Assembly: GCA_947652115.1 (NCBI GenBank)
Contig: OX393561.1
Location: 1,679,172-1,743,171 of the forward strand
DNA: 64,000 bases
Direction: 5' to 3'
Origin: Blastomussa wellsi
Taxonomy: Eukaryota; Cnidaria; Anthozoa; Scleractinia; Plerogyridae
Position numbers and translations under genes: made by a program. The notes below the pieces were generated by a model. It worked only from the letters and a program-made list of their open reading frames with translations. It searched no databases and was not told the origin of the DNA. Positions 3,159 through 61,683 of the stretch are shown in pieces (positions within the stretch are counted from its first letter, which is position 1; each line of letters starts with the position of its first letter).

Positions 3159-6100
3159 ATGACGGAAACAAGGGAAGAACAACATCTACAGCGCTTGAAA
3201 GCGTTGAACGCTGCTGGGAGATTTGCTCCGAATATTCTTGACCAACAAGGCATGTGCCATATTCATCACGCTGCTTACCGTGGTTATCTGATGTGTGTAA
3301 AGTGGCTCTTTAAGCGTGGAAGTAGTCTCAGTGCAAGGTAAAGCAATCTTTTTGCTAGTTCTTTTATTTCCTAAATAAAATGACGCGAGTTCATTCTTGG
3401 TATGCATGTATGCATATATGAAATGTATTTAATGGAACATCGTCCGTAGTAGAACGATTCTTTTGAAACATTCGTTTTTTGCGAAAATAAAAATTATACG
3501 CTAAGAAAAGTCTTTGTAGCTTATGATAAGCAGAAAGGAAATCCAGTTTGATTTCAAGCAAATGGAGTACCGAAATTAAAGGACCTTCGTCAGATTGAAA
3601 AAAAGAGCCCATTGCATTCCATCTTAAAGATAAATTCACAGTCCTAGCTTGTTCCTTTTTGATTCTGTTTCAATTTTTGTGACTGTTCAACCCATTTCAA
3701 CTCAGTATAAATTGTGTAAATTATATAAAGACCTTAAAAAGGATCAAAATTATATAAAAACCTAGTGTGCTATAGCAAGGGTCACGCAATACTGCTTCAA
3801 AAACTAGACTAAAACTTCGTCCTAATAATAACTAGTAGTAAAATGTTATTAACGATATGTTAGCAGGATCAGAGGAAGCTTTTTAGTTTGGTGTAACATC
3901 CAGCAGTAAAATATGCTTTCTCCCTCGACTTGATTCAGGTCAGGTGAAGGCTCGGTACCAGCTCACTACGCGGCTGCTGGGGGCCATCTTGAATGTCTCA
4001 AATGGATTTACCGAAAGGCTTCCAAAAGCATCTCTTTGAAGGTTTGTGAGACTCGCATGATATTCAAACACTGTGCCCCATAAATGATTTTCGTTGTGCC
4101 CATGCATTTTCGCCACGAAGTAGCTAGTCTAGTAGTCCGTTAAATGACTTGTGGCAAGTTTAATTACCGACGAAGTAACAGATGTAATATGTACCTCGTC
4201 GATTGCGAAGATAGTCTCCTACGCAGTTATTAGGGGATTGCGTCACACTTACACTCCCCACTGCGACACGTGTAACGCAATCGCCTAATAACGCCTGCGT
4301 AGGAGGCCATTGCGAAGAGTGATTGGGCTATTCCATTTAAAATCCGCACCCCCTCCCCCTTGTTAAGGATAAGTCTTTCAGTTTATCCCTTGAAAACTTC
4401 CTCACGCATAACAAACATAACAAAACAACTTTGACTTTAAAGACTTTTCTGGGTTAACCGCTAACCCCTAAAGAATTCCATAACTTTTTACCGATTCATC
4501 CTAAGAATACCTCTATTACCAATCTTAACCCTTAAGAAATCCGCAATTATCTACGCCCCCCAAAATTCCACTGCTCCTCGACAGGCGCGAGGGGGGGGGG
4601 GGGGGGGCTGGGGTGGGCGGTTCACTTCAGTAATACATGCAATAGCGCGTTACCAGGAACAGGTGCTACAACTGAAGAGTTTTGTCTTTGGCCACCGTAA
4701 AGAGATTCAAGTGCTGACGTTTCGAGCGTTAGCCCTTCGTCGGAGCGAATCAAGGAATTGTGCGTAGTGTGTCTTTATATACAGAAAGATGGAGCTTCGC
4801 TATTGGCTGGTGCCTGGTAACGTGAAAACTTGGGAATAAATTAGTTGAATGAAAAGCGTTCGTTGATACCGTGAGGATTAAGAGTGCCGATTTGAAAAAT
4901 AAATTTTTGTTCTAGAGTTTTACGGCTTTCCGTGTTTCCTTGGTGAAGGGAAAGGCCGCAGACTGCCATATGTTGCTTAGAATGATTTGGGAGATCGAAG
5001 TGTCGCGCGACCGGTTTCGATGCATTTTTGTCGTCTTTCTCTACGTCACGAAGGTGTTCTCGGAATCGGTCGCCAAGTCGTCTCCCTGTTTCGCCGATGT
5101 ATAACTTTTTGCAAAGAGTGCAAGTTATACAGTAGATGGCATTGGCTGAGGTACAGGTGAAATGATCAGTGATTTTGATAGATCGCTTGGGTCCCGATAT
5201 TTTGTCAACGTTGTGAATGAAAGGGCATGTTTTGCATCGTGCGCGAGCGCATTTAAAAGTTCCGGGTTGATCACTAGTTTGGAATGCACTTCTGACTAAA
5301 AAGTTACCTATGTTTTTGTCGCGTTTAAATGAAATTAATGGAGGTTGCGAAAAGATTTTACCAGTGTCGGGATCATTTTGAAGTAATTTAAGGTTTTTGA
5401 GAATGATGGATTTAACTGCGTGGTTGTGAGGGTGAAATGTGAGGGTGAATGGAATTCTATCGTTGTTTTAATCAATGTTAGTTCAAGCCATGTTACTTGA
5501 TTGTTGCATGATCATTATTACTTCACACTGATTTTTAGAAATCCCTAATCTTTGCACATCATAAGATAATAATAATTTCATTTATCTGTGCTTCTCGACA
5601 GGACAATAGTGGAGCTACGCCGCTTTATTTTTCAGGTAAGTAAAGTAAGCTACTATCCAACCACACTTTCAGCCAAACAATCGCCACCACAGTCACTCTC
5701 CTGCAATATAGACCTGAACCTCAGCCCAACAGACATGCAAGAAAATTGTTCTAACTAGTTTGTTTGATATTGCCTTTCTTCAAGCCCAAGAAGGCCACTT
5801 TAACTGTTTAGTGTGGCTTGCAAAGCATTCTGGGACTGTTCACAATGAGATGTCTGTAGATGGTATGACCGCTGTCCATGCTGCGGCTCTTGAAGGTCAT
5901 CTAGAGTGCATGGCATTTCTTGTGACCGCCACCGCCTGTAGTGCGTTGGCTCGAGACAGGGCTGCAAATACGCCCTTGCATTATGGTAGGACAAAAAAGA
6001 TTATTTGACTCAAATTCCAAGATTCAGAACTAGTGTAGAGTAGGAAGACTTGCCAGGACATAAAAATTTGAACCATAAAACAGAAGCTTAAAAATTAAAT

Positions 6101-13409: not shown

Positions 13410-13661
13410 CGTTTACTGTTGCTGTCCCCTATTAGTAAACAACATAAACGGCAAAGCCAACCCGCGGTATGCAAATCTCATGGCAAACAAAACTCCCACG
13501 CATGTGCTGTAGTTATCCAGCGTGTATCCATTCCTTGTGGATAGCCCATGCACGTAGCGCGCTAAGACGTCTGGGTAACGAATAGCTTCCTTTTCAAACA
13601 ACGCCTCCAGATACCAGCGGCAGTAAGACAGATTGTACATTAACGGCCCAAAAAAGGTGTA
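13410..13661 (-). pseudogene. ABCG last-exon copy, inverted, cut by Polinton
   Basis: The minus strand encodes a close copy of the last exon of the ABCG gene at 51940-52220 (shared stretch [20 protein letters not shown]). It ends in the same stop codon, and similarity to the plus-strand copy stops a few bases after it. The exon is cut near its 5' end by the Polinton at 13662, and the missing start of the exon is found on the other side at about 22932-22970. The frame of the surviving part is open. Confidence 0.85.
13656..13661. other. Target-site duplication, left (GGTGTA)
   Basis: GGTGTA sits directly before the left terminal repeat and again directly after the right one (22932-22937). A 6-bp duplication is the known hallmark of Polinton/Maverick integration. 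Confidence 0.9.
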
Positions 13662-13865
13662 ACTACTATAGGACGCTCATAGGGGCAGTAACCAATCAGG
13701 AGCCGAGAAAGACAATAGGCTATTGTTTGGAGAACAATAGACTCTATTGTTTTTCAAATCCAAGATGGCCGCCACAAATTTCAACCAATCACGAGCCGAG
13801 AAAAGACAAATAGGCTATTGTTTCGAGAACAATAGACTCTATTGTTTTCCAAATCCAAGATGGCG
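13662..13865 (+). repeat. Polinton left terminal inverted repeat
   Basis: The 204 bp start with ACTACTATAGGACGCTCAT and are matched by the inverted right end (22728-22931) with one difference (13794 region, GAGCCG against GAACCG). Two tandem subunits of about 95 bp each contain a CCAAT box, the palindromes AATAGGCTATT and AACAATAGACTCTATTGTT, and an AAGATGGC motif. A third partial subunit follows inside the element (13911-13942). Confidence 0.92.
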
Positions 13866-13879
13866 CCGTTAATTTTCGG

Positions 13880-14067
13880 CCAATCAGAAACAAGCATGGG
13901 GATAATTAAATCAAGATGGCCGCCACAAATTTCAACCAATCAACATCCAGTGGGGTGATCTGTGACCTGACCAATCACATCACTTCGTGACCATATAAGG
14001 ATCATGTATTTTGACTTGTAGCCATAAATAGAAAGATTGCTCAATAAAATCTTTCATTTGATTCACC
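13880..14067 (+). promoter_or_regulatory. Putative promoter of first Polinton gene block
   Basis: CCAAT boxes lie at about 13880, 13936 and 13971 (more upstream in the terminal repeat at 13692 and 13785). AAGATGGC, a YY1-like motif, occurs at 13913. A TATA-like CATATAAG sits at about 13992, some 75 bp before the first start codon. This spacing suits a polymerase II promoter with a start near 14020. Motif-based only. Confidence 0.5.
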
Positions 14068-14355
14068 ATGTCTAACTGCGATTATTGGTCTAGTCGCGAG
14101 TATTGGTCGAGGTTTGGCGAAAGATGCGAGCAAGTCGTTAACAAATACGGAAAGGATATAGTCCTTCCTACAGATTCCGTTGATGATCCCCTGAAAGAAT
14201 TCGAAGCCGTTGATGTGAGTAAAAACGTATTCCGTTTCGTGGTCTTTATCTTGTGGTTGAAACATCAATCTCAGTCATTCGAATGGTTTCTCACCATTCG
14301 TGAACGTTACCCAGACCTCTGGAGGCAATGTCTTTACAGAATGGCAAAACTATGA
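14068..14355 (+). CDS. Small Polinton protein, unknown function
   Basis: A 95-residue open frame, the first gene of the first block. It is rich in Trp, Arg and aromatic residues (SREYWSRFGE near the start, FILWLKHQ in the middle) and has no recognised domain, signal peptide or clear membrane helix. Its TGA overlaps the likely ATG of the integrase (ATGA at 14352-14355). The tight coupling and clean frame argue that it is a real gene; its role is unknown. Confidence 0.65.
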   Translation: MSNCDYWSSREYWSRFGERCEQVVNKYGKDIVLPTDSVDDPLKEFEAVDVSKNVFRFVVFILWLKHQSQSFEWFLTIRERYPDLWRQCLYRMAKL

Positions 14356-15434
14356 AGAGTAAAAAGACAAAGAAGAAGAAGGCTTATGCGACTCTGTTGA
14401 CAACCTATCGAGATCCGACCGCACCTGGTAGTTTGGGGGGCGTGGCTCGTTTTGCACGCGCACAAAAATTACCCGTTGGAAAAGTACGAAAGACATTGGA
14501 GCGTGATTTGGGTTATACCTTGCACAAACCCCGAAGACGACATTTTCCTACCCTCCCCGTGATGGTGTTTGGTATCGACGAACAATGGGCAGCAGATCTG
14601 ATCGAAGTGGTCAACATTGCCAAATCCAATCGCGGTTACAGGTATCTATTGACAGTGGTCGACGTGTTTTCCAAGTATGCCTGGGTGGAACCCGTCAAGA
14701 CCAAGACTGGAAAAGATGTGACGACTGCTTTTGAGAAGATTTTGAAACAAAGCCAAGGTCGTCAACCACAGAATCTTCAAACGGATAACGGTAAAGAATT
14801 TTACAACAAACACTTCCAAGCTTTGATGAAACGGAAAAATATCCATCATTTCTCTACCAGTGGAGACACCAAAGCTAGCATCGTAGAACGATTCAATCGC
14901 ACCTTGAAGGAAAGATTGTATCGATATTTTACCATCAAGAATACATTGACCTTCCTACCCGTGTTGCAAGATTTGGTCTTGGGCTACAATCGATCGTATC
15001 ATAGCAGCATCAAGATGGCCCCCAGCAAAGTGACTTCAAGTAATCAAGAAGAAGTATGGAACAACTTGTATGCCAAACGTTTGAATGCCAAACGTCTCAA
15101 GCCAAAGTTTAAAGTAAATGATCGCGTGAGACTCAATAAGAAGTTTAGAACCTTTAAGAAAGGTTACCTACCGGGCTGGACGGAAGAAGTGTTTATAGTA
15201 TCCAGAGTCGTCCCTGGAAGTGTGGTCACTTACAAAATCAAAGAGATGGATGAAACACCTTTGGAAGGCACCTTTTATTCTCAAGACTTACAGAAAGTCA
15301 CTGTATCAGACGACGATCTGTATCGAGTGGAAAAAGTGTTGAAACGAAAAGGGAATAAATTGCTTGTACGTTGGAAAGGTTGGCCAGATAAATACGACAG
15401 TTGGATTGACAAGAGGGACGTGAAAAAGCTTTGA
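14352..15434 (+). CDS. Polinton integrase with chromodomain
   Basis: Retroviral-type DDE integrase that would insert the element and create the 6-bp duplication. Starting at 14352 gives 360 residues; an in-frame ATG at 14328 would add eight. The start at 14352 is preferred because it forms the ATGA overlap seen elsewhere in the element. The catalytic acidic residues are visible as D82 (QWAADLIEV), D145 (QTDNGKEF) and E179 (IVERFNRTLKERL). The C-terminus from about residue 320 is a chromodomain (YRVEKVL, LLVRWKGWPDKYDSWI), which in chromoviral and Polinton integrases is thought to steer integration to modified chromatin. The N-terminus is strongly basic. All key residues are present, so it may be active. 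Confidence 0.93.
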   Translation: MKSKKTKKKKAYATLLTTYRDPTAPGSLGGVARFARAQKLPVGKVRKTLERDLGYTLHKPRRRHFPTLPVMVFGIDEQWAADLIEVVNIAKSNRGYRYLLTVVDVFSKYAWVEPVKTKTGKDVTTAFEKILKQSQGRQPQNLQTDNGKEFYNKHFQALMKRKNIHHFSTSGDTKASIVERFNRTLKERLYRYFTIKNTLTFLPVLQDLVLGYNRSYHSSIKMAPSKVTSSNQEEVWNNLYAKRLNAKRLKPKFKVNDRVRLNKKFRTFKKGYLPGWTEEVFIVSRVVPGSVVTYKIKEMDETPLEGTFYSQDLQKVTVSDDDLYRVEKVLKRKGNKLLVRWKGWPDKYDSWIDKRDVKKL

Positions 15435-15436
15435 GG

Positions 15437-16456
15437 ATGAGCGAGGAGTTTTACATTACCTTACCTAGCCACAGCAACCGGGCAGAGTTTCCCCAGAACC
15501 AAAGCAATTATTTCAAGATTCGATTACCCCATCCCATCAGGTTGCATGGTTCGAGTTGGAAAGTGGGATTGATTAGCATCTCCTTGCCAGACGTGAAAGT
15601 GCATCTCCCCAAGCTGGTCGACGGTAACGAAATCCTGTTTACCATGGATTGGATCATGAAATACCCTTCCGGTGCGTTAAAATTTGGTAGGGCCCACTAT
15701 GACCCGAAAGATCTCCGAACCATGGTAGAGTACATTGATGGTGTTGGCTTCATGAAAAGTATGGTGACATTTTTCGAGCAACGGCGCATCTTGAATTACC
15801 GAGGACCCCATCTTGGTAGCAGCTATACAGCATCCGATGGAAAGAGAATGTACGTGAAATTTCGTTGGGATGGAAACGATCTGCTGACGGATAACAAAGG
15901 GACACACGTACGCGCAATGTACTCACCAGCATTGAAGATCAATAAAATGTTGGCCTTAAAGATGGGGTGGTTGAAGGAGAGAAGCCCTGAAAATTATGAT
16001 TTGGGACCCAATTTACGTCAGGAGTTTTTTACAGACACGGTTCCCAATTTAGACACGATGACACATGATCTGGAAAACGACAAGGGTGAACCTGTGTTTT
16101 GGCTGATAGAAGAAGAAGACCTTTTTCATCTGAGCGTGACTTGTGATTGGCGCTTCACCAATCTCAACAAAGCCTTTCAAAACGTGGTGGGTTCAACATC
16201 ACGTTCCTTGTTCATTTATTCCGACGTGGGAGGTAGTTCAACGGTCGGAAATCAAGTCACGGATCTATTACGAGAGGTCAATTATCGACGCACAGGGGAT
16301 GGAAGTCATTATTTTGAACCGCTTCACATTCAATATATTCCGTTGCGCAAGACCCAGTTGGACATTATTGAGACGCAGGTGTCAGAGACAACCGGTGAAT
16401 TGACCGAATTTGGTGAAGGAAACACGATTGTCACTCTTCACTTTAAACGAGCATGA
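15437..16456 (+). CDS. Polinton structural protein, penton candidate
   Basis: A 339-residue protein starting at the ATG two bases after the integrase stop; a TTG six bases upstream is not needed. The N-terminus (EEFYITLPSHSNRAEF, then KVGLISISLP) and the C-terminus (SLFIYSDVGG, PLHIQYIPL, VTLHFKRA) are beta-rich and match a family I associate with animal Polintons and with neighbours of their capsid genes. Its place beside the major capsid candidate fits a minor capsid (penton) or other virion surface role, but I could not confirm a jelly-roll fold. No membrane segment or signal peptide. Its stop overlaps the next ATG (ATGA at 16453). Confidence 0.75.
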   Translation: MSEEFYITLPSHSNRAEFPQNQSNYFKIRLPHPIRLHGSSWKVGLISISLPDVKVHLPKLVDGNEILFTMDWIMKYPSGALKFGRAHYDPKDLRTMVEYIDGVGFMKSMVTFFEQRRILNYRGPHLGSSYTASDGKRMYVKFRWDGNDLLTDNKGTHVRAMYSPALKINKMLALKMGWLKERSPENYDLGPNLRQEFFTDTVPNLDTMTHDLENDKGEPVFWLIEEEDLFHLSVTCDWRFTNLNKAFQNVVGSTSRSLFIYSDVGGSSTVGNQVTDLLREVNYRRTGDGSHYFEPLHIQYIPLRKTQLDIIETQVSETTGELTEFGEGNTIVTLHFKRA

Positions 16457-16701
16457 AAGGTGGAAGTTTAACACGATTCAAACCTGACCCACAAGACGGA
16501 GGTGGCTTCGTTCAAGAACTGCTGAAAGCGAGTGTTGTGGGAGGTCTGAAAGGATTAAAAAGCGGTCGCGGTGTTCGAGATCGCATTTGGAAGGCAAAAC
16601 AGGGTGCAACTCGGAGCGCTAAACAAGCAGTCAAACGTAAAGCTTACGAAGTCCTAGATAGAAGCATCAAGCGAAAATTCAACGACATCTTCGGCGACTA
16701 A
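16453..16701 (+). CDS. Small basic Polinton protein (82 aa)
   Basis: Basic and Gly-rich, with a MKGG start, an early DGGG and a helical Lys/Arg-rich second half (KRKAYEVLDRSIKRKF). It begins on the ATGA overlap with the previous gene and ends in TAATG shared with the next. Size, charge and position between structural genes suggest a DNA-condensing or minor virion protein. The GG pairs could be cleavage sites for the element's protease. No family recognised. Confidence 0.65.
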   Translation: MKGGSLTRFKPDPQDGGGFVQELLKASVVGGLKGLKSGRGVRDRIWKAKQGATRSAKQAVKRKAYEVLDRSIKRKFNDIFGD

Positions 16702-16901
16702 TGAATCCCATCTACTCCAGAAGCTCGAGACTCGTGAAATCTAGAAAAGGGTTACGTCGTGAAGGATTCCCACTAACCTCGAAACGTCGACGAAAGGTAC
16801 AAAAAGGCGGATGGATTGGTCCTGAGGTCAGTAAACCTGTTGGCTACGATTGGGATCACATCTTAGCGAGAAGACAAAGGAGAAGAATAAGAAAAATATG
16901 A
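16701..16901 (+). CDS. Small basic Polinton protein (66 aa)
   Basis: Strongly Arg/Lys-rich (KRRRKVQKGG in the middle, RRQRRRIRK at the end). The basic-QKGG-hydrophobic pattern recurs in other small proteins of the element and resembles the Gly-Gly sites cut by adenovirus-type proteases. Linked to neighbours by TAATG (start) and ATGA (stop). Likely a nucleoprotein or core component; inferred from composition and context only. Confidence 0.65.
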   Translation: MNPIYSRSSRLVKSRKGLRREGFPLTSKRRRKVQKGGWIGPEVSKPVGYDWDHILARRQRRRIRKI

Positions 16902-18301
16902 CGGATACCTTGATGGACGGTGGGTTGTTACACCCTGCATCCAAATCAGTCCTGAATCCGCAACTGAACCTGTTTACCGTACCACCTACAGATCTCAGCA
17001 TGTCTAGTTATCGCATTGTACCCATTCAGACCTATACGACAGGCATCAATCCCGTGGAATTCCAAGTGGATCCGCAAGAAGATTACGTGGACCTCAGTCG
17101 AAGTTTCTTTGAGATTGAGTTAGCGCTCAAACTGGTGAATGGTGATAACATAGTCGAAGCCACGAGACTCTGGCCAACGAACAATTTGGCCCACACTTTG
17201 TTTAAACAGATCAGTGTGAGACTCAATGGTACCTTGATCAGTCCTCAAACCGACACCTATCATTACAAAGCATACCTGGAAACATTGCTCAACTACAACA
17301 GAGATGATGGAGAAACCGTACTAAGACCTCAAGGTTGGTACAATGCCCTGGACTTTCCAACAGAGTTAACTGCGAACAACACAAACACAGAAGGAGATGG
17401 ACACGAGGCTTTCAAAGAATTGTCCTCCAACCAACAAGCTTCAGTAAAACTGATGAAAGCAGAACAAGACAATTACACGGGTGGAAAAAGACACGTGCTA
17501 AGGTTTACACCCCACATCGAGGTGTTCCACTTGAACAAGTTATTGGTACCTGGTGTGCAGATTGGAATCCAGATGTACTTCAATTCTCCCAATTTGTTCT
17601 TGAATGGTGTGAACGTGGCTGGAAGATTGACGCACGAAGAGGTCAAAGTGAGAATGTACCTGTGTCAAGTAAGGCTTAATCCCAGCATCTACCGAGAGTT
17701 GATGACGAAAATGAACGTCAACCGAGCCATAGTGGCTTACCCTACCGTGAGAAGTGAAATTAGGACCTTCAACATGCAAGGGAACCAGCAAAGATACGAG
17801 TGCAACAATTTATTTCAAGGCCGAATTCCTAACAGAGTCATCGTGGGACTCGTGCATTCAGATGCCTTCAATGGTAATGTGGCACGTGATCCATTCTGTT
17901 TTCAAAAGTTTGGTGTGAGTAACATCAGGCAACTAGTGCGAGGAGAGGAGTACCCTTATGAGACCCTGGAACTAGTGCACAACGACAGTACCCAAGATCT
18001 GAGAGGTTACTATCGCTTCTTACAAGCCACGGGATGTCTGTGCAAACATCAAGGAAACATGGTGAGAAGAGAAGACTGGGGTCAAGGCAAGAATTGCACA
18101 CTGTTTGTATTTGACAATGCAGCCAACGGATGTTTGGACAGTCCTGTGTTGAACCCCAAGCAGTCAGGAGAGTTGCAGATCGTGCTGAACTTCGGTGTAC
18201 CACCGGGTAACAACATCACTGTCATCCTGTACGGAGAGTTTGAGAACCTCTTGGAGATAGACAAGAACAAAGCTGTGCTGTACGACATTTACCAACGCTA
18301 A
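16898..18301 (+). CDS. Polinton major capsid protein candidate
   Basis: A 467-residue protein if started at the ATG overlapping the previous stop (ATGA at 16898-16901). A TTG-less extension from an ATG at 16850 would read through the upstream gene and is less likely. The sequence contains LNPQLNLFTVPPTDLSM, then PVEFQVDPQEDYVDLS, then TLFKQISVRLNGTLI, then YLETLLNYNRDDGET. It matches the protein family annotated in many invertebrates as F54H12.2-like, which I regard as the Polinton double-jelly-roll capsid group. It is by far the largest structural gene and is followed at once by the maturation protease. The N-terminal MDGG-L could be a processing site. Fold assignment rests on motif memory. 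Confidence 0.8.
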   Translation: MTDTLMDGGLLHPASKSVLNPQLNLFTVPPTDLSMSSYRIVPIQTYTTGINPVEFQVDPQEDYVDLSRSFFEIELALKLVNGDNIVEATRLWPTNNLAHTLFKQISVRLNGTLISPQTDTYHYKAYLETLLNYNRDDGETVLRPQGWYNALDFPTELTANNTNTEGDGHEAFKELSSNQQASVKLMKAEQDNYTGGKRHVLRFTPHIEVFHLNKLLVPGVQIGIQMYFNSPNLFLNGVNVAGRLTHEEVKVRMYLCQVRLNPSIYRELMTKMNVNRAIVAYPTVRSEIRTFNMQGNQQRYECNNLFQGRIPNRVIVGLVHSDAFNGNVARDPFCFQKFGVSNIRQLVRGEEYPYETLELVHNDSTQDLRGYYRFLQATGCLCKHQGNMVRREDWGQGKNCTLFVFDNAANGCLDSPVLNPKQSGELQIVLNFGVPPGNNITVILYGEFENLLEIDKNKAVLYDIYQR

Positions 18302-18864
18302 TGGAGAAGGTACCTCTGAATAACGTGCAACTGGATCATTTGGCGAGAGCGGATGCCATCTTGAAACCCTACTTTTACGGGACGGTGGATTGTGATCGAT
18401 TACCACGTGGACCGATCAAGAAAGAACCTCGTGGGTACGTTGTAAACACTGATCCACACGACAAACCGGGCCAACACTGGTTGGCGCTTTGGACCCATAG
18501 TGGGAATGTGTGCGAGGTGATGGACAGCTACGCCCTACCTTTAGAGTCTTACGAGACAACAGAGCCCCTGCAAGACTGGTTAAAAGGTCAATGGAAATAT
18601 GTCATTTACAATGGACAGTCTCTACAATCGATTTACAGTAAAAGCTGTGGTGATTACGCCTTGTTTTATTTAAAAGACAGAGCGAGAGGTCAAAGCATGA
18701 ACGAGTTCTTGAGGCGTTTCTCGAAACATGATTATGTAGACAACGATCACAAAGTAGGCCAGATGTTAAAGAAGGTGGTCGAGAAAGAGTTGGAATGGGA
18801 TAAAGTTTGTAAATTGAAACATCATCAAGGCAGTTCTCGTTGCGGTGTGAGGCATTTAGTGTAA
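18301..18864 (+). CDS. Adenain-type cysteine protease (C5/Ulp1-like)
   Basis: A 187-residue protease expected to mature capsid and core proteins. Catalytic residues are visible: H59 (QHWLALW), D75 (VMDSYA), Q109 and C116 (QSIYSKSCGDYALFYL), with the seven-residue Gln-to-Cys spacing of the adenain family. Its ATG overlaps the capsid stop (TAATG at 18299-18303). It is the last gene of the first block: an AATAAA follows its stop by 16 bases. Length is close to adenovirus proteases. All catalytic positions are present, so it is probably active. Candidate substrates are the GG-containing small proteins of the element. Confidence 0.9.
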   Translation: MEKVPLNNVQLDHLARADAILKPYFYGTVDCDRLPRGPIKKEPRGYVVNTDPHDKPGQHWLALWTHSGNVCEVMDSYALPLESYETTEPLQDWLKGQWKYVIYNGQSLQSIYSKSCGDYALFYLKDRARGQSMNEFLRRFSKHDYVDNDHKVGQMLKKVVEKELEWDKVCKLKHHQGSSRCGVRHLV

Positions 18865-18880
18865 TGATTGTTGGTTTCAC

Positions 18881-18886
18881 AATAAA
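18881..18886 (+). terminator. Polyadenylation signal, first gene block
   Basis: A canonical AATAAA shortly after the protease stop and before the tRNA-like sequence. It fits the 3' end of a polymerase II transcript running from about 14.0 kb. Confidence 0.6.
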
Positions 18887-18914
18887 ATACGATTGAAAAC
18901 ATGTTCTGTGTGGT

Positions 18915-18993
18915 GGTCCTTTAGTACAATAATTAGTATCCTCGACTGCAACTCGAGAGATCGGGGCTCGATTCCCACAGGGTCGATTTTTTT
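18915..18993 (+). tRNA. Degenerate tRNA-Cys(GCA)-like sequence
   Basis: A 71-nt tRNA-shaped sequence (18915-18985) followed by seven T residues (18987-18993), a polymerase III stop. The anticodon stem is perfect (CTCGA/TCGAG) around the loop CTGCAAC, anticodon GCA. The D-arm has a four-pair stem (GTAC/GTAT) inside an A-box-like TAGTACAATAATTAG. The B-box is GGCTCGATTCC, one change from consensus. Weak points are only three pairs in the T-stem, two acceptor mismatches and no GG in the D-loop. It resembles a tRNA-Asp body with a Cys anticodon. It could be a decayed tRNA, a tRNA-like processing signal or a small polymerase III transcript. Confidence 0.5.
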
Positions 18994-19049
18994 CCTTTCA
19001 ATGTGGTATCAAAAGCAGCATACCCTTGCACATTTAGTCATTTGGAGTC

Positions 19050-19709
19050 ATGGAACGACGCGAGGCTTTTCGATTTCACACCCCTTCCAGTCTGTTGTTG
19101 GTGGGTCCTTCAGGGTGTGGCAAGACGGTGTTTACCACCAACCTTTTACTAAACAACCTCGATTTGTTTCATGCCCCACCATCCCAAATACATTATTGCT
19201 ACGGGGTGTGGCAAGAGGGGTTTCAACCCATGAAAGAACGGGGGATCAAGTTTCACGAAGGCGTTCCCGACACAGATCAATTGAAAAAGTGGTTTCCTAA
19301 AGGCGGATTGCTTGTGTTGGACGATTTAATGGCTGAGGGAGGAAACGATAAACGCGTGTTGGATCTGTTTACCAAACATTCTCACCATCAAAACGTCACC
19401 GTGCTCTACTTGTGCCAAGACATGTTTCCGCCCGGAAAATACGCAAAGAGCATTTCTCGTAATGCCCACTACATCGTAGCCTTTAAGAATCCACGAGATC
19501 AATTAGGCATGAGAAATTTACTATTACAGGCGTTTCCCACCCAATGGCAAGTTTTACAAGACACGTTTCAACGTTTGACAGAACGTCCATTTGGATACAT
19601 GGTCTTGGATTTACATCCAGGCAGTTCGGACGATCAAAGGATTCTCAGCCACCTTTTAAAAGACGAAGGATGTATGCGATGTCACAAATTCATCGAGACA
19701 TCAAGATGA
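19050..19709 (+). CDS. Packaging ATPase (FtsK/A32-like)
   Basis: A 219-residue P-loop ATPase expected to pump DNA into preformed capsids. Walker A is VGPSGCGKT (G19-T26). Walker B is GGLLVLDDLM (D91-D92). A conserved Gln follows in a beta-strand (LYLCQDMF), typical of the A32/FtsK packaging group. It ends in HKFIETSR and stops at TGA 19707-19709, overlapping the next ATG (ATGA). It is the first gene of the second block, with no obvious TATA box in front, and lies 56 bp after the tRNA-like sequence. Full length for Polinton ATPases, with all core motifs present. Confidence 0.93.
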   Translation: MERREAFRFHTPSSLLLVGPSGCGKTVFTTNLLLNNLDLFHAPPSQIHYCYGVWQEGFQPMKERGIKFHEGVPDTDQLKKWFPKGGLLVLDDLMAEGGNDKRVLDLFTKHSHHQNVTVLYLCQDMFPPGKYAKSISRNAHYIVAFKNPRDQLGMRNLLLQAFPTQWQVLQDTFQRLTERPFGYMVLDLHPGSSDDQRILSHLLKDEGCMRCHKFIETSR

Positions 19710-20254
19710 GATCTTCCCAAGATTTAATTACTACCGTATCTCTAATGAACGGATCCAGGAAAAGCGCTCAGCTGGTAAACAAAGATCTGCTGTACCGATT
19801 GGATGGGTTGTTTGCCTTCTACCACCGTCAGTGGTGGTGTCATCGTCAAATGTTTTACCACTTTAAGTGGTGCCACGGTTGTTTGAATGCTTTGGCTTTG
19901 ATGATCGTGGCAGCAGGCATCGTGGTAGGATCCGTCTTGGAAAACAGTATCCTGATTGCCTGTTTAACTGCCGCTGGAACTGTGATTAAGGGGTGGAATG
20001 ATTTCAAAAAGTTTTCATTCAAAATCGACATGAGTCGCTTTGCCTACACCACTTACGGCAAAACATTGATCGAATTGAGAACCTACGTGCGAGGACTTCC
20101 GATGGATGAGTTTGAGGGATTTTTGATCAAGATGCAAACCTTGGATGACACAATCACTGATTTCACACCCCCTGTATCTGACAAGTGCGTGCAAGAATAC
20201 CAACAACGATTTCGCTACGACCACGTCGATAAAAGCAGGAGCACTGACGTGTGA
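19706..20254 (+). CDS. Two-helix membrane protein, SLATT-like?
   Basis: A 182-residue protein starting at the ATG that overlaps the ATPase stop. A longer frame exists upstream but lies inside the ATPase gene. It has an aromatic/basic helix (FAFYHRQWWCHRQMFYHF), two adjacent hydrophobic segments near residues 69-105 (ALALMIVAAGIVVG and ILIACLTAAGTVI) and then a helical, polar C-terminal half. This layout recalls SLATT-type two-helix membrane effectors of bacteria, but the match is by eye. In a virion it could instead act in membrane association, entry or exit. A 15-bp gap separates it from the next ATG. Confidence 0.7.
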   Translation: MRSSQDLITTVSLMNGSRKSAQLVNKDLLYRLDGLFAFYHRQWWCHRQMFYHFKWCHGCLNALALMIVAAGIVVGSVLENSILIACLTAAGTVIKGWNDFKKFSFKIDMSRFAYTTYGKTLIELRTYVRGLPMDEFEGFLIKMQTLDDTITDFTPPVSDKCVQEYQQRFRYDHVDKSRSTDV

Positions 20255-20269
20255 GTGCTAGTATGTGTC

Positions 20270-20467
20270 ATGAAGAGAAAGCGAACAGTTCGTAGAAAAC
20301 CAAGGAGGCAAAGGAGGGCACAAAAAGGGGGATTATTACCGTTGGCAGCTCTCATTCCCGCTTTAGTAGCAGCAGGAAAGGCAGCGGCTCTAGGAGGAAT
20401 CTCTAGTGCAGCGGGTTACGGTGTGAAAAAAGGTTTGGAAGCTGCTTCGCGTAAACGTCGACGATGA
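20270..20467 (+). CDS. Basic core protein, pX/mu-like
   Basis: A 65-residue protein starting at the first ATG after the previous stop; the in-frame GTG at 20255 is not needed. The first 20 residues are almost all Arg/Lys (KRKRTVRRKPRRQRR). Then come AQKGG and a hydrophobic stretch (LLPLAALIPALVAAG), then a Gly/Ala region and a basic tail. A basic block, a GG cleavage-like site and a hydrophobic segment are the layout of the adenovirus pX (mu precursor) core protein. A DNA-condensing, protease-processed core protein is therefore the best guess. Stop overlaps the next ATG (ATGA at 20464). Confidence 0.7.
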   Translation: MKRKRTVRRKPRRQRRAQKGGLLPLAALIPALVAAGKAAALGGISSAAGYGVKKGLEAASRKRRR

Positions 20468-20814
20468 AAAACAAACCAAAGACCAAGAAAAGAAGTAAAC
20501 AGCGAGGCGGAGCACTGGCTCGACGTAGACATCGATTGGTAGACAAGATCGCTGAAGGAGCCAGTATGTTCTTATCGGGACCCTCACCTACCTTTGCTAC
20601 TCTGGCTTTGAAATTAGCAGGACAGGCAGCAAAAGGAATCAGAGACAATGTGAATCACTATAACAAGAGGCAACGTGGAGGTGCACTGCTTACTGTTCTC
20701 AAGAACGCGGCCAAGATCGGGTACAAGCTCGGCAAGGACAAGAGGTATAAGAGAATGGGAGCAAAGGGTGTCACAGGCAGTTACAACAGACGTCCTGCAC
20801 CGTGGGAAGTATGA
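20464..20814 (+). CDS. Basic Polinton protein with two GG sites
   Basis: 116 residues, starting on ATGA. Two copies of a QRGGAL motif (SKQRGGALARRR near residue 15 and KRQRGGALLTVLKNAAKIG near residue 75) divide the protein into a short basic leader, a central helical part (KIAEGASMF, ATLALKLAGQAAKGI) and a basic tail. The repeated motif looks like paired protease sites, suggesting a precursor cut into three peptides. Likely a core or minor capsid (pVI/pVII-type) protein; inferred from composition and context. Its stop overlaps the next ATG. Confidence 0.7.
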   Translation: MKNKPKTKKRSKQRGGALARRRHRLVDKIAEGASMFLSGPSPTFATLALKLAGQAAKGIRDNVNHYNKRQRGGALLTVLKNAAKIGYKLGKDKRYKRMGAKGVTGSYNRRPAPWEV

Positions 20815-21140
20815 GTCGTTTACGTAGACAACGCCCTTTCTTGGAGGCTATTCTCAAAGAGGCCAATCGGAACAGGAGACAAGAGATGTTAGAACATGCT
20901 AATGCAGATCAAATCAATACCGTGAGCGAAATGGTTCTCAACCTATTACGAAACAGAATTCCCGTTCACCCAATTACCATGGCTAAGCTGCACCACTATA
21001 AGACAACGCTACGCGAAGTGGGGAAACGTAAAAACTCAGTGAAGAGACGACGAGAACATCTCCAAAAACAAAAGGGTGCTGGATTCTGGCAAGGTTTACA
21101 CGACGTATTCAAGGCATGTCACTGCAAGAGCAGAGGCTGA
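20811..21140 (+). CDS. Conserved small Polinton protein (109 aa)
   Basis: Begins on ATGA with the previous gene. The first part is helical and basic (RRQRPFLEAILKEANRNRRQ); the middle (INTVSEMVLNLLRNRIPVHP) and C-terminal region (SVKRRREHLQKQKGAGFW) match a pattern I recall from many cnidarian and arthropod Polinton-type loci, without known function. KGAGFW again resembles a protease site. The last residues contain two Cys (CHC). The gene overlaps the next one by 25 bp. Confidence 0.7.
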   Translation: MSRLRRQRPFLEAILKEANRNRRQEMLEHANADQINTVSEMVLNLLRNRIPVHPITMAKLHHYKTTLREVGKRKNSVKRRREHLQKQKGAGFWQGLHDVFKACHCKSRG

Positions 21141-21382
21141 AGTTATATAAAGACAGCAACACCAGGCTCGTCCAGTTATTGAAGGAAGCCAACGACAGGA
21201 ACGCCAAATTGGAACAGAGTTCAGACAGATGGCATAAAGCCCACGACAACCTCATGCAAGAGCATTTGGCGCTCAAGTACAACGACGCATCGTGTCTCGC
21301 TTGTCAAGAGATAAGTGCCACCACCCCGCCTGGCAAAACGATCACTCCTTGCGAGCAGTGCATCGTGGCACGACGCAACTAG
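21116..21382 (+). CDS. Coiled-coil protein ended by in-frame TAG
   Basis: An 88-residue frame with a heptad-like first half (LKLYKDSNTRLVQLLKEAND) and a Cys-containing second part (CLACQE, CEQC), suggesting a possible metal-binding pair. It stops at TAG 21380-21382. The same frame then stays open to a TGA at 21503-21505 and still looks coiled-coil in character, so the TAG may be a nonsense mutation or a leaky stop. The base context is TAG-CAA. The downstream gene starts at 21465, inside this continued frame. Function unknown. Confidence 0.6.
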   Translation: MSLQEQRLKLYKDSNTRLVQLLKEANDRNAKLEQSSDRWHKAHDNLMQEHLALKYNDASCLACQEISATTPPGKTITPCEQCIVARRN

Positions 21383-21464
21383 CAAAAAGAAATCAAAGAC
21401 TTGACGGAAGAAGCCCACTATTGGCAAACGTGTTACGAATCGTTACTCGAACAACATTTCGAGC

Positions 21465-22082
21465 ATGACAGAAGAGGTGATGATGGTGCCTACGAGAGAG
21501 TTTGACCAATTGGTTCAGTATTACAAAGGAGAAATCACGGACCATGCCTTGTTGAACAAGGCGGGTCGATTGGCCGCTGAAAGCCATGTGATACTCCACG
21601 ATAAATCGATCCCAGATTCGATTGCCATCAAGAAAATTAAACCTTTAGCTCGTCAGAGAGGTCGTTTAACCAAACGTATCAGACAAATTGGTCCTTTGTC
21701 GAGCAATAGTGTTGATGTCGGTGAAGAGGAGGAGGCCGAGGAGGAAGGAGATTTGGTGAAGGGTCCGTTGGAAACCATGTTCAAACAATTGATCAAGAAT
21801 ACTTCTCGAGCTACGAAGACACCAAAGATCAAGGAAGAAGCTACACCATCTACGTCAGGTGTTAAAAAGAAGCCACCCGCTGCTAAAACACCCATTCCAC
21901 CTGACTCAGAACTGGGAACGCTCCTAAGAAAGGCTGACATTCTCCTGGGAAAAGACAAACGTAAAAGCAAGCGCAAACGTAACAACGAGGCCGAACGCTT
22001 AAAACCTACGAGTGGCTGGGAGGACTGGGCCCAAGGAAAGAAACTGAGACGAAATCTACAACACGATTATGACACGACCTAA
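21465..22082 (+). CDS. Conserved charged Polinton protein (205 aa)
   Basis: The N-terminal 75 residues (REFDQLVQYYKGEITDHALL, then NKAGRLAAESHVIL and KPLARQRGRLTKRIRQ) look like a conserved helical module that I associate with Polinton-type loci. A Glu-rich stretch (EEEEAEEEGD), a Pro/Ser/Thr linker and a Lys/Arg-rich C-terminal part ending in a Trp-containing segment (SGWEDWAQGKK) follow. No enzymatic motif. A scaffold, minor capsid or DNA-binding role is possible. It overlaps the next gene by 14 bp. Confidence 0.75.
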   Translation: MTEEVMMVPTREFDQLVQYYKGEITDHALLNKAGRLAAESHVILHDKSIPDSIAIKKIKPLARQRGRLTKRIRQIGPLSSNSVDVGEEEEAEEEGDLVKGPLETMFKQLIKNTSRATKTPKIKEEATPSTSGVKKKPPAAKTPIPPDSELGTLLRKADILLGKDKRKSKRKRNNEAERLKPTSGWEDWAQGKKLRRNLQHDYDTT

Positions 22083-22419
22083 GACCCGTACGCGGAAGTA
22101 TCGTCAACGTGGTCGTGGTTTAGACATTCAGAAATGGTTGGGCAAGACGGGGATCGAATTTCACTGGCCTGGATACCAGTACATGGGGCCTGGGACCAAG
22201 TTAGCTAAGAGACTGAAGCGTGGAGACCCAGGTATCAATCGACTGGACAAGATTGCCAAACAGCATGACATTGATTACAGTCATGCTAAGAATTTGAGAG
22301 ACAAGTGGAAAGCCGACGCTAAAATGATCAAGGCCATTGATAAGTTACCCGGCAGCAAAACGATGACTGAAAAGATTGTCAAGAGAATCATGCAAGCCAA
22401 GAAAAAGTTAAAATTGTAA
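22069..22419 (+). CDS. Phospholipase A2-like protein (VP1u type)
   Basis: A 116-residue protein with a basic leader and the two signature parts of the secreted phospholipase A2 fold as used in parvovirus VP1 unique regions. These are the calcium loop GYQYMGPGT (YMGPG at residues 38-42) and the active-site helix AKQHDIDYSHA (HD at residues 66-67), followed by an Asp (ADAKM) at the expected distance. In viruses this domain opens endosomal membranes during entry. A QRGRG motif near residue 15 may be a protease site. It is the last gene of the second block, with an AATAAA 35 bp downstream. Short but complete in motifs. Confidence 0.8.
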   Translation: MTRPKTRTRKYRQRGRGLDIQKWLGKTGIEFHWPGYQYMGPGTKLAKRLKRGDPGINRLDKIAKQHDIDYSHAKNLRDKWKADAKMIKAIDKLPGSKTMTEKIVKRIMQAKKKLKL

Positions 22420-22453
22420 TAATCAATTTCTCCTTTTGGAGTTCGTGTTATTC

Positions 22454-22459
22454 AATAAA
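22454..22459 (+). terminator. Polyadenylation signal, second gene block
   Basis: AATAAA 35 bases after the stop of the last Polinton gene. It fits the end of a transcript that covers 19.0-22.4 kb. About 270 bp of noncoding sequence follow before the right terminal repeat. Confidence 0.6.
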
Positions 22460-22727
22460 CGGTATAAATTAAACTTCAGACTCTTTGTTTTGTTTGAAAG
22501 ACAAATGGTACAGCAGGGAGTACCCCCTATCCCTCGTCACCTTGATGGTTGTTAACCACGTGATATTGCGTACCCCCTATCCCGGTCTTTTTATTGCTTC
22601 TTAACCGACCATTGTCTGTTCTTTTGCGCATATCCAAAACAAACTCCTATGGGAACCCGGGACCTAGTTTCCAGGTTTCACTGCTGCTCAGGGAGCCGCT
22701 ACCTCCTGATTGGTTGAAAATAACCTC

Positions 22728-22931
22728 CGCCATCTTGGATTTGGAAAACAATAGAGTCTATTGTTCTCGAAACAATAGCCTATTTGTCTTTTCTCGGTTC
22801 GTGATTGGTTGAAATTTGTGGCGGCCATCTTGGATTTGAAAAACAATAGAGTCTATTGTTCTCCAAACAATAGCCTATTGTCTTTCTCGGCTCCTGATTG
22901 GTTACTGCCCCTATGAGCGTCCTATAGTAGT
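22728..22931 (-). repeat. Polinton right terminal inverted repeat
   Basis: Inverted copy of 13662-13865 with one mismatch, ending in GCGTCCTATAGTAGT. The same CCAAT, palindrome and AAGATGGC units are present, facing inward. Confidence 0.92.
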
Positions 22932-22937
22932 GGTGTA
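22932..22937. other. Target-site duplication, right (GGTGTA)
   Basis: Second copy of the 6-bp target duplication, directly after the right terminal repeat. Confidence 0.9.
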
Positions 22938-55432: not shown

Positions 55433-58400
55433 TTAACCCTGGTAGAGAACTTCGTTGTTAAGAGACCTGAATGGTGTCTTCATATAAACTGCCTTGGAGC
55501 AACTGAATGTGTCGTTCACCTGTGATGTAATAGACTTGATTAGCCCATGGTCCGCCTTTACCATCCGACTTGCAAGCAGACGATTTTCCATATTTGTTGA
55601 AGGTCTTGGTGGAAAATGGCAACCTACTCTGATTCTCATTAAAGCCACATGAGAAAATTGAAATCTCTAAACGAAGGATAGAGAACTTCTCAGATCTGTA
55701 AAGAGTTCGTGACAAAATGGACATTTCGTGGTTGTTTAATTAAAATAGACACAATTTTAAACACTCATTAGGCTAACCTTTAGATAGCCACAGCAACAAG
55801 TTGTAGGCATGCATTTGACTCATTTACCTTTGACAAAATAGACCTGATTCGCCCACCCTCCACCTTCGCCATCAGCCTCACAAGCTATAGATTTTCCATA
55901 CTTGTCGTACGTCTGTAGCGCTGTAGCACTAGCTGCACACCAGCCGCCATTCTGAACTGCAAACATGTTGTAGCCCGCTCTCATTGCAGCCACGGCGCAC
56001 TTTGCAATGGGGTTCGTTCGGGAACGATAAGCTCCATCCAAGATAGAATCCTCTCCTTCCAATGTTTGGATTGCGCGACTCGAAGTATCTTTATAGCAGC
56101 CAACAGTTTTATAACCTGGATAAAGAGACACACAAAATTCAAACTACAACATAATCTGAACGATATAAGGATATATTAGGCATTATATCATTTACAAGGA
56201 AACGATCTGCCACGATGGCACCCGAACATTAACCGCCGACACATCGTTGCTCCATCCAAAGTATTGGTAAACTTCTCCGATAATAGTAAGTTATGGCCTT
56301 ACACAGCCTAGTCGCTTAGTCGACCCCTCACGGTAGGATGCAGGTTTGACCGAGCCAGGACGCCTAGTGACTAGGCTGGGCATTACGTTATCCTTCTACG
56401 AAATCACAACAACATGCCAGTCACTTGCAAATATATATAACAATGATTTTCGCGAACTTGTAGTCGATCACCCGTTAAAAATTTGAATAGAGGAGTTCCT
56501 AAGACACACAAATCAGACCAAAATCACCATTCCTTAGTTGTGGTGGAAATACGTTAACCCTGGTAGAGAACTTCGTTGTTAAGAGACCTGAAAGGTGTCT
56601 TCATATAAACTGCTTTGGGTCAACTGAATGTGTCGCTCACCTGTGATGTAATAAACTTGATTAGCCCATGGTCCGCCTTTACCATCCGACTTGCAAGCAG
56701 ACGATTTTCCATATTTGTTGAAGGTCTTGGCAGCAGAAGCACTGCTTGCACACCATCCACCATCTTGAACTGCGAAAACTTGGAATCCACGTTTCTTGGC
56801 TGCACGATAGCATTTCTCGATAGCGTCAATTCTTGCCTGATAACCGCCATCCAAGATGGAATCTTGTCCTTCTATCGTTGGAACGGCGCGGCTACCGCGA
56901 TCTTGGAAACATCCGATCGTCTCGTATGGTCGAGCGGAATCTGTGAAGGTAGGTTTGCCAATGTTATTTCAATGTACGGCTTACATTGATGTGCACTAAG
57001 GAAAATACAAGCACGTCCATTTTAACAATTCCCTGGAATCTCTCTTAAATTGCCTTTTCAGGCAGGCTTTTTATACCATTTCTGCATTTGTGGAAAATGG
57101 CAACCTACTCTGATTCTCATGAAAGCCACATGAGAAAATTGAAATCTCTAAACGAAGGATAGAGAACTTCTCAGATCTGTAAAGAGTTCGTGACAAAATG
57201 GACATTTCGTGGTTGTTTAATTAAAATAGACACAATTTAAACACTCATTAGGCTAACTTTTAGATAGCCACAGCAACAAGTTGTAGGCATGTATTTGACT
57301 CATTTACCTTTGACAAAATAGACCTGATTCGCCCACCCTCCACCTTCGCCATCAGCCTCACAAGCTATAGATTTTCCATACTTGTCGTACGTCCGTAGCG
57401 CTGTAGCACTAGCTGCACACCAGCCGCCATTCTGAACTGCAAACATGTTGTAGCCCGCTCTAATTGCAGCCACGGCGCACTTTGCAATGGGGTTCGTTCG
57501 GGAACGATAAGCTCCATCCAAGATAGAATCCTCTCCTTCCAATGTTTGGATTGCGCGACTCGAAGTATCTTTATAGCAGCCAACAGTTTTATAACCTGGA
57601 TAAAGAGACACACAAAATTCAAACTACAACATAATCTGAACGATATAAGGATATATTAGGTATTATATCATTTACAAGGAAACGATCTGCCACGATGGCA
57701 CCCGAACATTAACCGCCGACACATCGTTGCTCCATCCAAAGTATTGGTAAACTTCTCCGATAACAAGTAAGTTATGGCCTTACACAGCCTAGTCGCTTAG
57801 TCGACCCCTCACGGTAGGATGCAGGTTTGACCGAGCCGGGCATTACGTTATCCTTCTACGAAATCACAACAACATGCCAGTCACTTGCAAATATATATAA
57901 CAATGATTTTCGCGAACTTGTAGTCGATCACCCGTTAAAAATTTGAATAGAAGTGTTCCTAAGACACAAATCAGCCCAAAATCACCATTCCTTAGTTGTG
58001 GTGGAAATACGTTAACCCTGGTAGAGAACTTCGTTGTTAAGAGACCTGAAAGGTGTCTTTATATAAACTGCTTTGGGTCAACTGAATGTGTCGCTCACCT
58101 GTGATGGAATAAACTTGATTAGCCCATGGTCCGCCTTTACCATCCGACTTGCAAGCAGACGATTTTCCATATTTGTTGAAGGTCTTGGCAGCAGAAGCAC
58201 TGCTTGCACACCATCCACCATCTTGAACTGCGAAAACTTGGAATCCACGTTTCTTGGCTGCACGATAGCATTTCTCGATAGCGTCAATTCTTTCCTGATA
58301 ACCGCCATCCAAGATGGAATCTTGTCCTTCTATCGTTGGAACGGCGCGGCTACCGCGATCTTGGAAACATCCGATCGTCTCGTATAGTCGAGTGGAATCT

Positions 58401-61400: not shown

Positions 61401-61683
61401 ATCTATACAGTGTGTTCACACAGAAAGTTTGTCAATGTTCGCAGTAACTCGATAAGTTTTTTATCGTTATGCCATTCCATGCGAATTTCAAGCCGAAGAA
61501 TCTCCGCATGTACATTATATGGAAAAAGGCAAAGATCCTCGCTGAGGATCTTTGGTGTAACTTGCATGGAATACAGCCTGAACGTTATATAGCACATTAA
61601 TACTTACCGCATTGTAGAAGGTCAAACAGAGCAGTGCAGAGAAGGACATTGATAAAGAAACTTTTATTCTTTGCGCGATGCAT
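55433..61683 (-). CDS. Secreted protein of eight alternating 4-Cys domains
   Basis: Minus-strand exons: 61683-61608 (signal peptide, MHRAKNKSFFINVLLC and on), then 61402-61094, 60567-60280, 59879-59580, 59053-58766, 58398-58099, 57595-57308, 56940-56641 and 56115-55828. The first exon ends in phase 1, and every domain exon is a multiple of 3 starting and ending in phase 1. Two domain types of 96-103 residues alternate. Both have GC(Y/F), a central KC, FAVQ(N/D)GGWC and YGKS.AC..DG.GG.WANQVY. The four-cysteine pattern faintly recalls WSC/PAN-type lectin domains, but I do not recognise the family with certainty. Introns are also nearly identical between units, so the array is recent or homogenised. 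The terminal exon is unclear; a truncated domain remains at 55606-55520. Confidence 0.75.
55520..55735 (-). pseudogene. Truncated repeat-domain exon
   Basis: Only the last part of the second domain type remains (TFNKYGKSSACKSDGKGG, then PWANQVYYITG). Immediately upstream on the minus strand it joins sequence that in full units lies in the intron some 200 bp away, so a deletion removed the first two thirds of the exon. Reading past the donor gives a stop shortly after (SLYEDTIQVS), which could serve as the gene's end. Confidence 0.65.

What the first reader, a model, noticed from the sequence alone, without database searches (positions are those of the whole stretch)
13662..22931. Complete 9.3-kb Polinton with capsid and integration genes but no DNA polymerase
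Both ends, the 6-bp duplication and every morphogenesis gene are present, yet the polymerase B that defines most Polintons is absent and no coding space is left for it. One explanation is a satellite lifestyle: the element encodes its own particle and integrase but borrows replication from the host, a full Polinton or a large virus. The alternative is a recent internal deletion derivative. Compact overlaps and lack of debris favour a streamlined lineage over a random deletion.
Basis: partly seen in the sequence, partly recalled or inferred. Interest (0 to 1): 0.88.

Follow-up and report, generated by a model that had tools for sequence, protein, structure and literature searches.

The report
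Coral Polinton lineage without DNA polymerase
A 9.3-kb virus-like mobile element in what looks like a coral genome carries capsid and integration genes but no DNA polymerase, and has spread to many places in that genome in this stripped form, probably by borrowing the polymerase of fuller relatives.

Summary
Window 13662-22931 is a complete 9,270-bp element with 226-nt inverted ends, a 6-bp target duplication (GGTGTA) and 13 packed ORFs: integrase, penton, double-jelly-roll capsid, probable protease, packaging ATPase, PLA2 and others. No polymerase was recognised and there is no room for one. It is not a one-off deletion. The host genome holds 15 capsid loci at 95% identity or more. I read 14: none has a polymerase between its ends, and 6 of 9 insertion sites checked show their own 6-bp duplication. 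Silent changes predominate between copies (dN/dS 0.16-0.52 for this copy against ten others), so the genes were kept under selection while the polymerase-less form spread. The genome has at least 74 family-B polymerase loci. Of three capsid relatives at 90% identity, two have a polymerase 7.6-7.7 kb downstream on the same strand. Elements with other genes share similar ends (86-96%). Best reading: a polymerase-less Polinton lineage, descended from a polymerase-bearing one, that now replicates in trans on polymerases of other Polintons. The helper step is inferred, not shown. Host replication and a multipartite genome are not excluded.

The parts
13656..13661 (.). target-site duplication GGTGTA, left
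   Evidence: direct reading
13662..13887 (.). left terminal inverted repeat, with tandem 95-bp units carrying AAGATGGC, CCAATCA and AACAATAG motifs
14068..14355 (+). orf1, 95 aa, unknown; 18 homologues in the protein database; fast-evolving between copies
14328..15434 (+). retroviral-type (rve) integrase with C-terminal chromodomain (chromodomain below Pfam cut-off)
   Evidence: rve 5e-16, Chromo 7e-5
15431..16456 (+). penton (minor capsid) protein
16453..16701 (+). 82-aa basic protein, unknown (position of Maverick PW; inference)
16910..18301 (+). major capsid protein, double jelly-roll
18301..18864 (+). probable adenain-like maturation protease (weak profile match; catalytic-motif resemblance is recalled)
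   Evidence: Peptidase_C5 E 0.11, below cut-off
19050..19709 (+). genome-packaging ATPase, A32/FtsK type
   Evidence: Pox_A32 5e-5, above cut-off
19703..20254 (+). predicted membrane protein, weakly SLATT-like
   Evidence: SLATT_1 E 0.019, below cut-off
20464..20814 (+). 116-aa basic protein, unknown
20802..21140 (+). 112-aa protein, unknown
21116..21382 (+). 88-aa protein, unknown
21465..22082 (+). 205-aa charged protein, unknown
22069..22419 (+). phospholipase A2-like protein (Phospholip_A2_4)
   Evidence: E 4e-12
22420..22705 (.). non-coding right subterminal region
22706..22931 (.). right terminal inverted repeat
22932..22937 (.). target-site duplication GGTGTA, right
   Evidence: direct reading

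Best explanation
The element is an integrated copy of a polymerase-less Polinton (Maverick/adintovirus-type) lineage. Shown: complete ends, own integrase, capsid set, packaging ATPase, repeated insertion as a unit of about 9.2 kb, and selection on its genes between insertions. Inferred: its ancestor carried a polymerase B, probably at the right end as in its 90% capsid relatives, and lost it. It now replicates when the protein-primed polymerase of another Polinton (resident or infecting) starts DNA synthesis at its ends. It then packages itself in its own capsid and integrates with its own integrase. It would thus be a satellite for replication only.
For: 15 of 92 capsid matches in the genome are at 95% or more. 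14 were read and none has a polymerase between its ends. Six of nine sites checked carry distinct 6-bp duplications: GGTGTA, TCCACG, CCAGTC, CTTACA, AAAGCG, CCCCTC. dN/dS of this copy against ten others is 0.16-0.52; in four pairs picked for a binomial test (window-C8, window-C1a, window-C2b, C8-C2b) silent changes are in excess at P 7e-13, 5e-11, 5e-22 and 5e-22. At least 74 polymerase loci, many in open frames of over 1,300 codons. Two of three capsid loci at 90% identity have a polymerase 7.6-7.7 kb downstream, same strand. Elements of other gene content share the ends: L015 282 nt at 96.5%, L017 299 nt at 94%, although L017's integrase is only 68% identical in aa. Polymerase-bearing elements on C4 and C1 10.7 Mb share 66-90 nt of end sequence at 84-91%. 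Termini are AGTAGT at 5 of the 9 sites, the commonest Maverick motif in PMC8097293 section 7.
Against: No helper has been seen to act. The two polymerase-bearing elements whose ends resemble these have a polymerase split over several frames (C4) or only partly present (C1 10.7 Mb). The 90% relatives were not among the 52 end matches (which scored 40 of 87 candidates), so the likeliest helpers may not share the ends; I could not read them. Tandem arrays with end-joined junctions also fit replication by host enzymes. Termini at 4 of the 9 sites, this one included, read ACTACT, not AGTAGT. Some pairs of broken copies give dN/dS up to 0.79; integrase summed 0.66, orf1 1.39; C2a-C2c 1.63 on seven changes.
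Confidence: 0.6

Rival explanations
1. Deletion derivative only: one polymerase-bearing Polinton lost its polymerase and the copies spread passively with the full element (in trans for integrase and capsid too), like an oversized non-autonomous transposon.
For: 90% capsid relatives with a downstream polymerase exist; other Polinton capsid loci are abundant in the genome.
Against: Purifying selection on capsid, ATPase, protease and PLA2 between copies (0.26, 0.08, 0.23, 0.10) suggests that its own genes matter for spread; integrase is weaker (0.66).
Confidence: 0.15
2. Host-replicated virus: after excision the DNA is copied by host polymerases as circles or concatemers, without any helper.
For: C2 holds three head-to-tail units of 9,242 bp with identical junctions that lack about 14 bp of each end, bounded by one 6-bp repeat; C22 holds a second, rearranged array.
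Against: The inverted ends with tandem motifs look like a protein-primed origin, and copies with one end replaced by the other (C1a) fit panhandle repair (both inferences); tandem arrays can also arise after insertion by unequal crossing-over.
Confidence: 0.17
3. Multipartite genome: this is the capsid/integrase segment, and another element class with the same ends carries the replication genes.
For: L015 (C5, 9,168 bp, duplication TATCAG) has ends 94.7-96.5% identical to this element but other genes (GRF zinc finger and unknowns).
Against: No polymerase was found in L015, L017 or L029 with two polymerase queries; L017 and L029 carry their own integrase, so they look like a separate lineage. 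L015 has a 200-N gap at the centre of a palindrome and may be a defective form.
Confidence: 0.08

Closest known systems
Polinton/Maverick (adintovirus-type) elements
   Same: rve integrase with chromodomain, double-jelly-roll capsid, penton, probable protease, ATPase, inverted ends, 6-bp duplication; AGTAGT termini at 5 of 9 sites read (motif in PMC8097293 section 7)
   Different: no polymerase B; 9.3 kb against 12.7-24.6 kb for intact vertebrate Mavericks (PMC8097293 section 7); all genes on one strand; ACTACT termini at 4 of 9 sites
Virophages (mavirus, Sputnik)
   Same: would work alike if helper-dependent; capsid and penton models match mavirus
   Different: mavirus has its own polymerase B (PMC11071308, passages) and depends on a giant virus (abstract of PMC8547959 in listing); here the polymerase itself is missing and the presumed helper is a Polinton
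Meldviruses without polymerase and integrase
   Same: adenovirus-class virion proteins without polymerase B (PMC11071296 section 16)
   Different: those lack integrase as well, and the example shown (Meld19810, figure legend) carries a primase-helicase and tyrosine recombinase; this one keeps the rve integrase and shows no recognisable replicase
Polintons that lost the capsid module
   Same: module loss in Polintons is known: nine elements without capsid also lacked protease and ATPase (PMC4028283, passages)
   Different: the mirror image: here the polymerase is lost and the capsid module kept

Membership tests
Polinton/Maverick | protein-primed polymerase B | tested here: not met
   window; no hit of polymerase queries in the 13 further copies read
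Polinton/Maverick | rve-type integrase | tested here: met
Polinton/Maverick | double-jelly-roll major capsid protein | tested here: met
Polinton/Maverick | penton (minor capsid) protein | tested here: met
Polinton/Maverick | packaging ATPase | tested here: met
   Pox_A32 23.3 bits against cut-off 22.8
Polinton/Maverick | adenoviral-type protease | tested here: inconclusive
   Peptidase_C5 E 0.11
Polinton/Maverick | inverted ends and 6-bp target duplication | tested here: met
Adintovirus (definition in PMC11071296 section 16) | polymerase B with N-terminal OTU-like domain | tested here: not met
   no polymerase
Adintovirus (definition in PMC11071296 section 16) | rve integrase with C-terminal chromodomain | tested here: met
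   (chromodomain 23.2 bits, just under the cut-off 25.1)
Adintovirus (definition in PMC11071296 section 16) | hexon recognisable by BLASTp to reference adintovirus hexons | not tested
   no reference adintovirus hexon was compared by sequence
Satellite virus / virophage-like | replication depends on a helper | not testable with these tools
   needs experiment
Satellite virus / virophage-like | lacks a replicase of its own | tested here: met
   none recognised; a wholly unknown replicase among the small ORFs is not excluded

The most novel reading that the evidence does not exclude
A two-component animal DNA virus system: a capsid-and-integrase element and separate replication-gene elements that share the same ends, so that the virus genome is divided among independently integrating DNAs.
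Probability: 0.08. Interest if true: 0.9.

Novelty: new variant of a known kind. Interest (0 to 1): 0.64.

Why it matters
If right, animals host a helper-satellite relation among Polintons themselves, in which the satellite keeps its own capsid and integrase and borrows only the polymerase. That would be a missing step between autonomous Polintons and virophage-like parasites, in a genome where satellite and possible helpers can be compared side by side.

Tried and rejected
Relatives in viral contigs and genome contigs: capsid (both collections), capsid alignment, polymerase and integrase queries (viral contigs) gave no confirmed locus, so no outside copies with context were obtained. The 14.7-kb copy (C1, 15.157 Mb) was checked for a polymerase in its extra 5.4 kb: it is a retrotransposon with reverse-transcriptase- and tyrosine-recombinase-like ORFs (DIRS-like by eye; no profile search run). 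The 38.9-kb C22 stretch is an array of rearranged units plus an LTR retrotransposon (BEL/Pao-like by eye), with no polymerase hit. The polymerase beside the C1 44.38-Mb copy lies outside that copy's end, in its own stretch bounded by inverted repeats, and its 1,446-codon frame holds one stop. The idea that L015 is the replication segment was not borne out: no polymerase found. The protein database gives no genome context, so public capsid relatives at 88-94% could not be scored for polymerase. The 9.9 kb read at the C12 888.9-kb end match (L028) showed end sequence but no hit of the 13 proteins. Six single-end places or their flanks were asked for and never read.

Full report

It is a lineage. 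The ends give 52 matches in the 367.8-Mb host genome. The capsid search gives 92 matches, 15 at 95% or more. I read 14 of these 15: the window copy; C1 15.16, 44.38, 26.39 and 2.75 Mb; C9 18.99; C8 19.27 and 18.87; C12 11.83; C16 6.65; C22 8.63; and three in a C2 array. The fifteenth (C1:2759164) was not read. The copies carry the same gene set, most genes at 95-100% aa identity to the window's and lower (down to about 74%) where a gene is broken or partly lost. C16 lacks ATPase, SLATT and part of the protease; C12 lacks one small gene and parts of others; several copies have stops or frameshifts; in 6 of 14 the match to orf1 lacks the first 30 residues. No polymerase query hit inside any of the 13 copies outside the window. 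Of nine sites checked for target duplications, six match (this one, C1 15.16, C9, C8 19.27, C12, C2 array; the C2 one lies in a C-rich run); C1 44.38, C1 26.39 and C16 do not, the last two with a damaged end. C22, C8 18.87 and C1 2.75 were not checked.

Selection. Gene-by-gene comparison of 11 copies (55 pairs; C22, C8 18.87 and C1 2.75 not included) gives, for this copy against the ten others, dN/dS 0.16-0.52 (0.16 C8, 0.16-0.17 the C2 three, 0.19 C1a, 0.26 C1c, 0.30 C1b, 0.32 C9, 0.34 C12, 0.52 C16). In four pairs picked for a test the silent excess has P 7e-13 to 5e-22. Pairs of broken copies reach 0.79, as expected from decay after insertion, and two nearly identical C2 units give 1.63 on seven changes. 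Summed by gene: ATPase 0.08, PLA2 0.10, protease and the 112-aa protein 0.23, capsid 0.26, 205-aa protein 0.28, penton 0.35, SLATT 0.50, 88-aa protein 0.60, integrase 0.66, 82-aa protein 0.69, 116-aa protein 0.81, orf1 1.39. Pairs share copies, so they are not independent.

Possible helpers. Pfam DNA_pol_B_2 rings at 74 merged places, many in open frames of over 1,300 codons; only 74 of 1,043 candidates were scored, so this is a lower bound. Within 20 kb of a listed polymerase lie 1 of 15 window-lineage capsid loci (C1 44.38 Mb, where it lies outside the element's end), 2 of 3 loci at 90%, 0 of 1 at 79%, and 30 of 73 at 66-70%. In the two 90% relatives the polymerase is 7.6-7.7 kb downstream of the capsid start on the same strand; by this element's spacing that is to the right of PLA2 (inferred; PLA2 was not mapped there), where this element has only its 286-bp right leader. 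In 26 of the 30 at 66-70% it is 9.3-13.6 kb away on the opposite strand. So this lineage most likely lost a right-end polymerase.

Ends. At 5 of 9 sites at least one end reads AGTAGT (C1 15.16, C1 44.38, C9, C12, C16), the commonest motif of vertebrate Mavericks (PMC8097293, section 7 read); at 4 of 9, this one included, it reads ACTACT. The ends hold 12 of the window's 18 AACAATAG, 5 of 10 AAGATGGC and 7 of 24 CCAATCA sites in about 540 bp (no meaning was tested). Polymerase-bearing elements on C4 and C1 10.7 Mb share 66-90 nt of this at 84-91% and some of the same motifs. A second class with other genes (L015, L017, L029) has ends 86-96% identical to these over 225-300 nt, although the integrases of L017 and L029 are only 65-68% identical in aa. 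Such likeness of non-coding ends across diverged elements suggests exchange of ends or a shared replication machine; this is inference.

Literature. In the papers listed (titles and abstract starts), and in the passages or sections seen of PMC11071296, PMC4028283, PMC8097293 and PMC11071308, I saw no animal Polinton with capsid and integrase but no replicase described as a lineage. This is limited to open-access papers and those search terms. Starrett et al. 2021 was seen only as cited there.

Mechanism. Shown: structure, repeated insertion, selection, no recognisable polymerase, presence of family-B polymerase loci beside other Polinton capsid genes in the same genome. Inferred: ancestral loss, replication in trans by another Polinton's polymerase, packaging in its own capsid.

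Noticed in passing
L015 (G000:C5:18719400-18728950): 9,168-bp insertion (duplication TATCAG) with ends like this element's, built as a palindrome of two 4.4-kb arms 99.5% alike around a 200-N stretch, with a GRF zinc-finger gene; recalls the symmetric defective genomes of adenoviruses (recalled).
   Followed up: partly
L024-L026 (G000:C2:34542992-34570723): Three head-to-tail units at 9,242-bp steps with identical junctions, about 14 bp of each end lost, one 6-bp repeat outside the whole array.
   Followed up: yes
L027, L031-L033 (G000:C22:8630871-8669782): Second array of internally rearranged units interrupted by retrotransposon sequence.
   Followed up: partly
L038 (G000:C1:18703900-18713300): Five polymerase-B frames of about 1,434 codons repeat at about 8.9-kb steps; the unit read has no hit of this element's 13 proteins. 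Nature unknown.
   Followed up: partly
L036-L037 (G000:C1:44389845-44399505): Polymerase-B stretch of about 9.7 kb bounded by 211-nt inverted repeats (95%) right beside a copy of this lineage, with few other ORFs; possibly a polymerase-only element.
   Followed up: partly
G000, capsid loci at 66-70%: 43 of 73 have no listed polymerase within 20 kb, including loci with identical capsid scores; there may be further polymerase-less families, or the polymerase listing is incomplete.
   Followed up: no
L009-L010, L018, L020-L022, L027: In these copies (6 of 14) the match to orf1 lacks its first 30 residues; in L009 and L027 the left end is replaced by right-end sequence, as if one end had been copied onto the other.
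   Followed up: partly
window 56579-61592: Repeated WSC-domain-like host ORFs on the minus strand at about 1.5-kb steps (Pfam WSC 3e-5, just under cut-off, for the one tested).
   Followed up: no
window 4841-5467: GIY-YIG-domain ORF on the minus strand, possibly a Penelope-type retroelement remnant (recalled).
   Followed up: no
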